Of a stretch of 64,000 nucleotides of DNA, positions 12,891 through 18,693 are shown in pieces (position 1 is the stretch's first letter; every line of letters starts with the position of its first letter). Both the position numbers and the translations under genes were made by a program. The notes beneath the pieces were generated by a model that saw only the letters and a program-made list of their open reading frames with translations, was not told where the DNA came from and searched no databases. The stretch is from an uncultured Clostridia bacterium (GTDB taxonomy: Bacteria > Bacillota > Clostridia > Oscillospirales > Acutalibacteraceae): contig CANQGM010000007.1 of assembly GCA_947623205.1 (NCBI GenBank), forward strand, positions 54,670 to 118,669. Reading direction: 5' to 3'.

Positions 12891-12914
12891 GGATAACTTG
12901 GAATTATCTATTAT
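12891..12914 (+). repeat. left copy of 24-bp perfect inverted repeat
   Basis: ggataacttggaattatctattat; exact reverse complement at 18670-18693. Confidence 0.95.
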
Positions 12915-12956
12915 CCAAAATATCATAATAACTGTGTGCATATAGCACTTTTAAGT

Positions 12957-12990
12957 TGTCAAAAACAAATACTCATCATACTTTTTGACA
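12957..12990. promoter_or_regulatory. 9-bp inverted repeat, possible operator/hairpin
   Basis: tgtcaaaaa ... tttttgaca upstream of the 13039 ORF. Confidence 0.4.
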
Positions 12991-13038
12991 TAATTTAAAA
13001 TCTAAATATTTACTTAAAAACGTATTATAGGTGGTACT

Positions 13039-15253: not shown

Positions 15254-17537
15254 GCGGCTCCGATACTTTTAATGTATTATCTTCACAATAATGACAACTG
15301 GGTCCAAGTTTTACACTATGTTTCCTGCAAATAGATTGAACTGCACGAACTATTTCAAGTAATTCAGCATCCGAGGGAGGTAACAAATAATCTAACGGTG
15401 TTCCTGCAATCGGTTTAAAAAGAGATAATATAGGAGATACCCCTATCCTGCAAATCTCCTCTATACCTGAAAGCAAAGAATCCTTTGGTTCTAGTCCTAC
15501 AATGAATATGCTTCTGACATTTCCAGATTTACCCCAGATTTCCACAGCGTTTCTTAATGCTGTTAGATATGTTGCAATAGGTATTAATCCCTTTCCCGGC
15601 ATATATTTTTTTGCAATCTGACGATTAAAAATTTCTATATTAAAAGTAACTTCTGTTATGCCAGCCTCTTTTAATTGATGTAATATTTGTTTATCTGTAA
15701 TCGGCAGAGACATTAGATTAATAGGATATTTATTTTTTTTGCGAATATATTTTGCGATTTTGCAAACAAAATCATAGTCATTATTTAAGGGGTTGGATCC
15801 TCCGCCAATTAAATAATGCTTAATGCTTTTACAGTCATCATAAGCATCGATAGCCTCTGTTATATATTCAATAGATAATTCTCTATCATCCCTGTCGATG
15901 TCACAAAATCCACAGCCACAGCCCATACTCTTATAGTTGCATCCAAATCTATGATATATTCTTAATCTATCATTACCGAGGTATGTAAAATCGCTTAAAA
16001 TTAGCTTAGCATCAGCAGTTTTTCTATTTGAAATTAAATTGATGCCTCTTACTTTAACATCTGATATAATATTACTTCCATAATAAAGATAAAGCTTACC
16101 GTTATCTCGGAGTTTAATAATAAATGGACTAAGCTGAGATAGATTTGCTTGATAGGGAACACTAAAATAATACTTATTTCCTATTATCATATCAATTGCA
16201 TCAAATTCTTCGCAATTTACGCCTTCTGCATTATTCAAAAAGCACAGAGTGTTATTATCTATGATAACTCCGTGAGAAAGTAGCATAATCTTTAATTCTA
16301 AGATATCGCTCTGTGATTGATTCCCAATTAATGTATCCTCGATACATAGATTCGGATGAACAATCAAATTATAATCATGTGAAATTGCGCTAATGTTTTT
16401 TGAGAAAACCAACTTATATAGATATGTCCCTTCCTCCAGTGTATCTTGCCAAGAAAGGTTATCATCAATCAGTTTAATGTCCTTAAATGAATTAGCTTGC
16501 TCAAAAAGATGACGCAGCAAATTATCGTTTTTTTTCGAGTAAATAGCTTTATAGTAACTGTAGTTTACATCTAAATTGATGTTATAAGTGGGGTAGGTGT
16601 TATTAAATGCCTCCAGATGAAATCTCTGCATACTGTAATTCTCATTAACATTACTTATTGAGTCGTTTATTAAGAAAGTTGATGATTGAAACCTTGGATT
16701 TATTTCTGAAAAGTATACATTAGTCGGAGTGGTAATATAATCTATTCCGCAGATTCCCAGATACCCGCTTCTGCGTAATCTTTCACCGATTAATTTTGAG
16801 TAACGAAGGATTTTCTCTTTTATTGGAGTAGGCAAATACTTATAAGCAATGAAATCAGCACCTTTATATTCAAAATTGAATGAGTCTGGATTTAGTTCAA
16901 TTAATTGTATGGAAGCAGGAAACAATAACACTTCTTTTGCGTATACTACTAAATGAATATTGACAGAAATGTTATTCTTGATATATGGAGTCAATGAATA
17001 TATCCTATTAGCATCAATTTTGGAAACAACCAAATTCCAGCTTTGTTCTGTTAATAGCCACGTCTCAGAGCCGCCACACGAATACTCTCCTTGAAGGACG
17101 TAATTATTCTTCATTAATGAATTACGCATATCAAGTACACGCTGACCGTAACAAACCTCATTTTGAAGAACAGGGACTTCATTACCTAACCATTCACGGC
17201 ATTTAAACTTATTGTCCCATAAATCCAGTTTTCGAGCATCCATATATCCGATAAGATGTGATGTCAGCAATTCACTGTAATGTACAGCATCCATTGGGTA
17301 ATACAAAACAAATTGGGCATTTGGATATCTTTCAATAATATTTTCCGCCTTGCGGTTAACAAAGTCAAACCAGATATCTATATCTTCATTATAGTCAAAC
17401 CTAGTTTTATACTGCTTATCTAACGCAAAGTTTCCATTAAGATTAGAACCAAATATAGTAATTGAACCTAAAAAAATGTTAGATGTGTTTTTTATCTCTG
17501 ATTCTTGAATACCTATCCAAAAAAGTTGATTAATCAT
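15234..17537 (-). CDS. ATP-grasp-like domain fused to C-terminal radical SAM domain
   Basis: N-terminal YVLQGEYSCGGSETWLLTEQ and GYLGICGIDYITTPTNVYFSEINPRFQSST; C-terminal FGCNYKSMGCGCGFCDIDRDD..HYLIGGGSNPLNND..GITEVTFNIEIFN. Confidence 0.75.
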   Translation of the reverse strand: MINQLFWIGIQESEIKNTSNIFLGSITIFGSNLNGNFALDKQYKTRFDYNEDIDIWFDFVNRKAENIIERYPNAQFVLYYPMDAVHYSELLTSHLIGYMDARKLDLWDNKFKCREWLGNEVPVLQNEVCYGQRVLDMRNSLMKNNYVLQGEYSCGGSETWLLTEQSWNLVVSKIDANRIYSLTPYIKNNISVNIHLVVYAKEVLLFPASIQLIELNPDSFNFEYKGADFIAYKYLPTPIKEKILRYSKLIGERLRRSGYLGICGIDYITTPTNVYFSEINPRFQSSTFLINDSISNVNENYSMQRFHLEAFNNTYPTYNINLDVNYSYYKAIYSKKNDNLLRHLFEQANSFKDIKLIDDNLSWQDTLEEGTYLYKLVFSKNISAISHDYNLIVHPNLCIEDTLIGNQSQSDILELKIMLLSHGVIIDNNTLCFLNNAEGVNCEEFDAIDMIIGNKYYFSVPYQANLSQLSPFIIKLRDNGKLYLYYGSNIISDVKVRGINLISNRKTADAKLILSDFTYLGNDRLRIYHRFGCNYKSMGCGCGFCDIDRDDRELSIEYITEAIDAYDDCKSIKHYLIGGGSNPLNNDYDFVCKIAKYIRKKNKYPINLMSLPITDKQILHQLKEAGITEVTFNIEIFNRQIAKKYMPGKGLIPIATYLTALRNAVEIWGKSGNVRSIFIVGLEPKDSLLSGIEEICRIGVSPILSLFKPIAGTPLDYLLPPSDAELLEIVRAVQSICRKHSVKLGPSCHYCEDNTLKVSEPPKTSQL

Positions 17538-18636
17538 TTATTTCACCTTTATTTTCTATTCCAAAATCTAAAACAATTTGATTGAATAGTTTTTGATAGT
17601 TTTCTTCGAAATTACTGTCAGGTTGTTTGAGACCACCTTTTACTGCTGTCAAGCACTCACATGCAGACTGACTCATCAAATTTGATATAAGTAATTTTCG
17701 CTCTTTAACTTCATCTGTTCTAAGAAAATTTTGGAAGAACTTGTTCAATATAGGCTTACATATTCTGCAAGCTTGGGGCATTATGGTAGGACTATCTTTT
17801 GAATATGATTCATCTCGGTTACCGTACCAAGCAATAATGATTTCTTGTAACGCTTTGTCCGAAAGCTTATCCAATAATATCACAACCAGCCATAAGGAAA
17901 TTGGTGTATAAACCTTTTTGTCATACATATATCGTAAAAAGGTAAAATATTTAATATTCAAAGGGAACAAAACAGGAGAACATCCTTGACACACAACCCA
18001 TTCAATTGTATTTATTGCGTCATCAATCTGCTGCTTGGGGCTTAGAAAAGGTAAACCTAACATAATATTTATTTCAATATTATAGTTATATTTCTTAATT
18101 AGTTGTATCGTAGAAAGATATTCTTTGATACTAATTCCTTTCATAAATAAAGCATCTTGATACTTTGGATTTATGGTTTCTAATCCCATTTCTATTGTAA
18201 TAGGTTTCTCAACAATCCGGTTAATTAAATCTAACTTATCTTTTGTTACATCCTTGTAATGAGTCTCTATAATAATATTGGGAATAGAGCTTTTTTGCGC
18301 TTCTATTAGAATAGCTGTTAATATTTCAGTCGAGATTTGATAAGAATCCAAAATACTTCCATTCGTGCATAGTAGCAAATAATCAATATTTTCTGTATAC
18401 TCTGCTAAAATAGCTTTCATCTCTCTGATATATTCCTCAAGCGAGCCCATTTGATGCATGTAACCATAATCACACATTAAACAGGATCCGCTTAAATCAT
18501 TTTTGCATTGTTTGCTCAGAAAACCAATTTCTAATAAATCGCCTGATCTAAATATTGAGCATAACACTTTGGTTGATAAACAAGGACGTTTATTTCTAAT
18601 TTGTTTATTAATCCTTTTAAGTGTAATTGTATCCAT
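17530..18636 (-). CDS. radical SAM protein (Elp3/archaeosine-synthase RaSEA-like cysteine spacing)
   Basis: LSKQCKNDLSGSCLMCDYGYMHQMGSLEEYI; TNGSILD; IEMGLETINPKYQDALFMKGISIKEYLSTIQLIKK; 8-nt overlap with downstream gene. Confidence 0.75.
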   Translation of the reverse strand: MDTITLKRINKQIRNKRPCLSTKVLCSIFRSGDLLEIGFLSKQCKNDLSGSCLMCDYGYMHQMGSLEEYIREMKAILAEYTENIDYLLLCTNGSILDSYQISTEILTAILIEAQKSSIPNIIIETHYKDVTKDKLDLINRIVEKPITIEMGLETINPKYQDALFMKGISIKEYLSTIQLIKKYNYNIEINIMLGLPFLSPKQQIDDAINTIEWVVCQGCSPVLFPLNIKYFTFLRYMYDKKVYTPISLWLVVILLDKLSDKALQEIIIAWYGNRDESYSKDSPTIMPQACRICKPILNKFFQNFLRTDEVKERKLLISNLMSQSACECLTAVKGGLKQPDSNFEENYQKLFNQIVLDFGIENKGEIND

Positions 18637-18669
18637 AATATCTCCTAAATTTAATTAGTTGTAATTGTT

Positions 18670-18693
18670 ATAATAGATAATTCCAAGTTATCC
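18670..18693 (-). repeat. right copy of 24-bp perfect inverted repeat
   Basis: ataatagataattccaagttatcc = reverse complement of 12891-12914. Confidence 0.95.

What the first reader, a model, noticed from the sequence alone, without database searches (positions are those of the whole stretch)
12891..18693. Perfect 24-bp inverted repeat brackets a 5.8 kb four-gene module beside a tyrosine recombinase: candidate invertible either/or cassette
Seen directly: ggataacttggaattatctattat at 12891-12914 and its exact reverse complement at 18670-18693. Between them are two convergent operons (pentapeptide + membrane protein rightward, two radical-SAM genes leftward) whose 3' ends overlap by 20 nt, so the interval looks like one unit. 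The repeat has an internal dyad, GATAA-cttggaa-TTATC, resembling a tyrosine-recombinase core site, and a tyrosine recombinase (11722-12699) starts ~190 bp away. An extended -10 (TGgTATAAT, 12869-12877) lies just outside the left repeat pointing inward. I recognise no equally good promoter outside the right repeat, and the radical-SAM ATG is only ~34 nt from that repeat. Inference: inversion would swap which operon sits under the outside promoter. Alternatives: a shared operator for one regulator, or terminal repeats of a mobile cassette.
Basis: partly seen in the sequence, partly recalled or inferred. Interest (0 to 1): 0.85.

Follow-up and report, generated by a model that had tools for sequence, protein, structure and literature searches.

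The report
Invertible either/or gene cassette family
This gut bacterium appears to carry a reversible DNA flip switch: a neighbouring recombinase can turn round a whole block of two head-to-head operons, so that either one operon or the other faces an outside promoter, and related bacteria use the same switch with completely different cargo, including phage-defence genes.

Summary
In detail: a perfect inverted repeat (25 bp, not 24) bounds a 5.8 kb module of two convergent operons, next to an intact tyrosine recombinase. It is one of a family. In 13 loci with orthologous recombinases (two in this genome), the recombinase sits beside a 1.8-5.9 kb cassette bounded by inverted GATAA-N7-TTAT sites. 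The 7-bp spacer is identical at both ends of a locus but differs between loci. In 11 of 13 loci the cassette is two convergent halves whose start codons lie 0-124 bp from the sites. Inversion is supported indirectly: one assembly holds three of four junctions of both orientations; one cassette occurs in opposite orientations in two genomes; contigs break at the recombinase-proximal site in 13 of 38 cases (0.4 expected); and relatives of the window's cassette pile up as complete 5.6-5.8 kb contigs. Cargo is swapped between strains at identical flanks and includes Thoeris, TIR-like/glycosyltransferase and ATP-grasp/AAA-TPR pairs. A proximal promoter and distal inward terminators favour either/or expression, but expression was not measured, the window lacks that terminator, and the inverted form of the window's own cassette was not seen. 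I found no published description in the open-access library. Verdict: a new variant of site-specific inversion systems.

The parts
11722..12660 (-). tyrosine recombinase (XerC/D-like, 312 aa), the presumed inverting enzyme
   Evidence: Pfam Phage_integrase 2.2e-41; catalytic motifs present by inspection; orthologs sit beside inverted-repeat cassettes in 12 other loci
12869..12877 (+). extended -10 promoter element (TGgTATAAT) pointing into the cassette
   Evidence: sequence; conserved in G607, G030, G495, G232 beside the same recombinase
12890..12914 (+). proximal recombination site (core GGATAA-CTTGGAA-TTATC)
   Evidence: same core architecture in all related loci
13039..14484 (+). pentapeptide-repeat protein (N-terminal solenoid plus helical C-terminal part), proximal operon gene 1
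   Evidence: Pfam; AlphaFold model pLDDT 84.9; Foldseek matches the solenoid only
14498..15253 (+). membrane protein, no family match, proximal operon gene 2
   Evidence: positional counterpart in G400 L009 10904-11650
15234..17537 (-). ATP-grasp + variant radical-SAM fusion protein, distal operon gene 2
   Evidence: Pfam PF02655/PF04055, NCBIfam NF045502; 214 homologs, many on about 5.7 kb contigs
17530..18636 (-). radical-SAM protein (RaSEA-like, below the RaSEA cut-off), distal operon gene 1
18670..18694 (-). distal recombination site, exact inverse of the proximal one

Best explanation
12890-18694 is a site-specifically invertible cassette. The tyrosine recombinase at 11722-12660 recombines the two inverted GGATAA-N7-TTATC sites, which works because their 7-bp spacers match, and turns the 5.8 kb segment round. 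Both operons start just inside a site and meet tail to tail. A promoter fixed on the recombinase side should therefore transcribe whichever operon is proximal (here pentapeptide + membrane protein), leaving the other (two radical-SAM genes) with little or no transcription until the next flip. The same locus design accepts different cassettes in different strains. Supported here by sequence evidence: site architecture, matched spacers, convergent halves, cargo exchange, and both orientations in relatives. Inferred: that this recombinase does it, that this particular cassette flips, and that flipping changes expression.
For: Repeat unique and perfect. Orthologous recombinases beside inverted-repeat cassettes in 12 further loci. 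Spacers identical within each locus, different between loci. 11 of 13 cassettes are strictly two convergent halves, start codons 0-124 bp from the sites. Opposite orientations of one cassette: G067 versus G150 (ATP-grasp 65%, AAA-TPR 44-45% identity). Three of four junctions of two orientations inside one assembly, L006. Contig ends within 350 bp upstream of the recombinase in 13 of 38 cases against 0.44 expected; G022's contig stops on the last base of the site. Proximal promoter conserved; inward terminators outside the distal site in 4 of 13 loci, 0.15 expected, none proximally.
Against: No direct evidence that this particular cassette inverts: the own assembly shows one orientation, and window, G032 and G400 all have the pentapeptide side proximal. 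Contig breaks could also come from cassette polymorphism between strains. Right flank of the window has a promoter-like match and no terminator. The 124-bp gap before the pentapeptide ATG could hold an internal promoter. Promoter scores differ between sides only at p = 0.014, on loci that are not all independent. Two of 13 cassettes (G000 C13, G545 C47) are not cleanly convergent, and several recombinase relatives have no detectable cassette. G150's inward terminator may belong to a neighbouring operon.
Confidence: 0.77

Rival explanations
1. Exchangeable cassette: the recombinase mainly swaps cassettes between genomes (cassette exchange at paired sites); inversion is a by-product and both operons are expressed from promoters on both flanks.
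For: G032, G546 and G545 share a 97% identical proximal flank up to the site but hold unrelated cassettes; own C13 and G546 share the distal helicase (86% aa) with different cargo; in the Thoeris cassettes both halves should be needed together, which is awkward for strict either/or; promoter-like match on the window's right flank.
Against: Convergent halves with starts abutting the sites, inward terminators beyond the distal site and none on the proximal side; both orientations seen.
Confidence: 0.25
2. The repeats are binding sites of one regulator placed before both operons (shared operator), with no recombination.
For: The repeat has an internal dyad and lies just upstream of both operons.
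Against: Identical spacers within a locus but different spacers between loci, contigs ending on the site, cassette boundaries and orientation switches at the site.
Confidence: 0.03
3. The module is a separate small circular or transposed element of 5.7 kb, which explains the stand-alone contigs.
For: Many homologs on about 5.7 kb contigs.
Against: No replication or transposition gene inside; inverted sites cannot excise a circle; both halves are full length on contigs of the same length, unlike a circle cut at random; no near full-length match in the plasmid or phage collections.
Confidence: 0.04

Closest known systems
Mu G-segment / P1 C-segment tail-fibre inversion (Gin, Cin)
   Same: Several-kb segment with alternative gene sets turned by a nearby recombinase so that one set is expressed (from general knowledge, not tested here)
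   Different: Those use serine recombinases and switch alternative versions of the same tail-fibre genes; here a tyrosine recombinase and unrelated operons
Tyrosine-recombinase phase switches: C. difficile RecV switches, pneumococcal PsrA/hsdS, E. coli Fim-type, gut invertons
   Same: Tyrosine recombinase, inverted repeats, reversible orientation; clostridial invertons linked to tyrosine recombinases are reported (PMC11892184, PMC5903667, PMC7096588)
   Different: Those described there turn promoters, switch sequences or hsdS segments rather than whole alternative operons, and exchange of unrelated cargo at the site was not what they describe
Shufflon (Rci)
   Same: Several sites with related cores at one locus in L006 and G047
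   Different: No alternative C-termini of one protein are assembled; each cassette carries its own matched spacer
PinQ inversion against phage T2 (PMC12529663)
   Same: Recombinase-driven inversion linked to phage defence
   Different: Serine recombinase, prophage segment, no defence cassette with convergent halves

Membership tests
site-specific DNA inversion switch (inverton, broad sense) | inverted pair of recombination sites | tested here: met
site-specific DNA inversion switch (inverton, broad sense) | matched crossover spacer at both sites | tested here: met
   13 of 13 loci
site-specific DNA inversion switch (inverton, broad sense) | cognate recombinase with catalytic residues nearby | tested here: met
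   the link to these sites is by association over loci
site-specific DNA inversion switch (inverton, broad sense) | both orientations exist | tested here: inconclusive
   met in relatives; not seen for this cassette
site-specific DNA inversion switch (inverton, broad sense) | inversion changes expression | not testable with these tools
   needs RNA data
invertible promoter | promoter lies inside the inverted segment | tested here: inconclusive
   the conserved promoter lies outside and starts lie close to the sites, but the 124-bp gap in the window leaves room for one inside
Thoeris (for cassettes L041 and L042 only, not the window) | ThsA (SIR2-STALD) with TIR partner | tested here: met
   PADLOC ThsA 1.9e-96 and 1.5e-99; TIR partner matches ThsB only in L042 (4.5e-11), TIR domain in both
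Hailong HalA | pentapeptide effector above the curated cut-off | tested here: not met
   35.9 bits against a cut-off of 250

The most novel reading that the evidence does not exclude
A widespread family of interchangeable, invertible two-state cassettes in gut Clostridia, each pairing two convergent operons (for example the two halves of Thoeris, or an ATP-grasp enzyme and an AAA-TPR protein) under one external promoter, so that inversion separates the two components in time: only cells that have just flipped hold both.
Probability: 0.3. Interest if true: 0.92.

Novelty: new variant of a known kind. Interest (0 to 1): 0.8.

Why it matters
Known inversion switches mostly turn promoters or swap versions of one protein. 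Here whole, unrelated operons would be alternated, and the cargo is exchanged between strains, including halves of a known anti-phage system that should work together. That raises a directly testable question: is immunity, or another costly function, phase-variable because its parts are never transcribed at the same time? It also gives a set of tyrosine recombinases with short sites and apparently orthogonal spacers, and a practical signature (stand-alone contigs of cassette length) for finding such switches in metagenomes.

Tried and rejected
Plasmid and phage collections held no relative covering 80% of the ATP-grasp/rSAM protein; viral contigs gave none. Genus of G445 gave no further cassette. 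A promoter-score comparison of the two flanks gave only modest support. The large distal/proximal TPR-like proteins of L045 and L047 did not align with each other, so the orientation argument rests on G067 versus G150. Structure of the pentapeptide protein matched only generic pentapeptide solenoids, so it did not reveal a function. RNA folding of the leader was not significant. G047's two contigs that start with the same 46 bp fit inversion but also a longer inverted repeat, so I do not count them as proof. Six literature searches on inversion, invertons and phage defence found no description of this arrangement; preprints and most subscription journals are not covered.

Full report
Observation. 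The inverted repeat is as described, with one more matching outer base: AGGATAACTTGGAATTATCTATTAT at 12890-12914 and its exact inverse at 18670-18694. With up to three mismatches it has no other copy in the window and none in 100 shuffles. In the 1.74 Mb genome the core occurs exactly twice, with a two-mismatch relative on another contig. The four genes between the repeats form two convergent operons with a 20-nt overlap at the 3' ends. The proteins are a pentapeptide-repeat protein, a membrane protein without family match, an ATP-grasp/radical-SAM fusion and a RaSEA-like radical-SAM protein. The neighbour at 11722-12660 is an XerC/D-like tyrosine recombinase in which I read the usual catalytic motifs.

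A family of loci. Searching the genus and family for the recombinase and reading the DNA upstream of it, together with loci found through the ATP-grasp/rSAM protein, gave 13 loci where the recombinase lies beside a cassette bounded by inverted repeats: the window, a second locus of the same genome (contig C13), G032, G400, G546, G556, G067, G553, two in G545, G232, G150 and G347. The core is GATAA-N7-TTAT (with small departures, e.g. GCATAA in G400). In every locus the 7-bp spacer is the same at both ends, while spacers differ between loci (CTTGGAA, CTAAGAA, CTTACAA, CTTTAAA, CTAACAA and others). That is the expected signature of a recombinase crossover site. Several recombinase relatives, mostly the more distant ones, had no detectable cassette.

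Design of the cassettes. In 11 of 13 loci the cassette is strictly two convergent halves, with the first start codon at each end 0-124 bp inside the site (in G400 the mechanical ORF call overlaps the site, in G232 the gap is about zero, and G067 carries an IS66-type insertion). There is little room for promoters inside, least of all in the relatives; the window has 124 bp on the proximal side, so an internal promoter there is possible. On the recombinase side an extended -10 (TGGTATAAT) close to the site is conserved in the window, G607, G030, G495 and G232. Intrinsic terminators pointing into the cassette lie just outside the distal site in G556, two G545 loci and G150 (4 of 13, 0.15 expected), never on the proximal side. 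In G150 the terminator may belong to a neighbouring operon. The window itself has no such terminator and has a promoter-like match on its right flank. A general promoter score favours the proximal side only modestly.

Cargo. The cargo differs completely between loci: OTC/ATCase-like enzyme against AAA-TPR protein (own C13); ThsA-like SIR2-STALD against TIR (G546, and G556 with HAD and thymidylate-kinase-like genes), ThsA by PADLOC at 1e-96 and 1e-99; ATP-grasp against AAA-TPR (G067, G150) and against large TPR-like or unassigned proteins (G553, G545); a TIR-like protein against glycosyltransferases (G232 and Lachnospiraceae contig L006). Penta/ATP-grasp-rSAM cassettes with inverted sites also occur in G032, G400, G874 and G1266, the last two without a recombinase found next to them. 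G032, G546 and one G545 locus share a 97% identical proximal flank up to the site but hold unrelated cassettes; own C13 and G546 share the distal helicase (86% aa identity). So cassettes are replaced at the sites over evolutionary time.

Evidence that inversion happens. (1) G067 and G150 carry the same cassette (ATP-grasp 65%, AAA-TPR 44-45% identity) in opposite orientations relative to orthologous recombinases. (2) Contig L006 contains the same left flank joined at the site core to both ends of a glycosyltransferase/TIR-like segment, and one of these ends joined also to a different flank: three of the four junctions of two orientations in one assembly, with one scaffold gap. (3) Contigs end within 350 bp upstream of the recombinase in 13 of 38 cases, 0.44 expected. 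Several end at or just past the site, G022 exactly on its last base and G495 inside it. (4) Of 120 homologs of the window's ATP-grasp/rSAM gene, 43 lie on contigs of 5600-5830 bp, against 1 of 120 for the recombinase. Points 3 and 4 show junction heterogeneity and could partly reflect cassette exchange; points 1 and 2 are specific to inversion.

Interpretation. The best reading is a G-segment-like switch made of a tyrosine recombinase and a cassette of two unrelated operons: the operon that faces the recombinase-side promoter is on, the other is off or low. Shown by sequence: architecture, matched spacers, cargo exchange, orientation differences in relatives. Inferred: that this recombinase acts on these sites, that the window's cassette itself flips, and that expression switches. 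The function of the window's cargo stays open; the pentapeptide protein models well (pLDDT 84.9) but matches only pentapeptide solenoids.

Literature. Papers on C. difficile RecV (PMC5903667), gut invertons (PMC11892184), PsrA (PMC7096588) and PinQ (PMC12529663) describe related mechanisms, but no paper found describes exchangeable, invertible convergent-operon cassettes. Absence from this open-access library is not proof of novelty.

Noticed in passing
G000 contig C13, L036 6409-11840: A second locus of the same kind in the same genome: recombinase (72% identical), inverted site with spacer CTTTAAA, cassette with an OTC/ATCase-like gene against an AAA-TPR protein.
   Followed up: partly
L041 4382-6522 and L042 4207-8022: Thoeris-like ThsA and TIR genes placed convergently inside an invertible cassette, which would separate their transcription.
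   Followed up: partly
window 12760-12790; G607 L037 and G030 L038 upstream of the recombinase: A palindrome GTGTTCACAAAAATGTGAACAC between recombinase and cassette promoter in G607 (close variant in G030), decayed in the window; possible operator.
   Followed up: no
L009 15026-17638: A third, related copy of the site beyond an AbiE-like gene pair suggests tandem cassettes; G047 contig C22 likewise has two site types in a row.
   Followed up: partly
L042 4207-4278 and L009 9336-9404: The repeats contain two dyads in tandem (a GATAA-type and an AACTTACAATAA-type), perhaps sites of two recombinases.
   Followed up: no
window 9316-10743, 19743-21134, 21744-23225: Serine-recombinase genes and fragments surround the module, suggesting an integration hotspot or nested mobile elements.
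   Followed up: no
window 10813-11676: BRO-N/DinD-like gene next to the recombinase, also present in G546 and G032; strong match to PADLOC candidate PDC-S13 (3.3e-138).
   Followed up: no
window 12950-13000: Inverted repeat TTGTCAAAAA...TTTTTGACA in the leader between the proximal site and the pentapeptide ATG; the predicted fold is not significant.
   Followed up: partly
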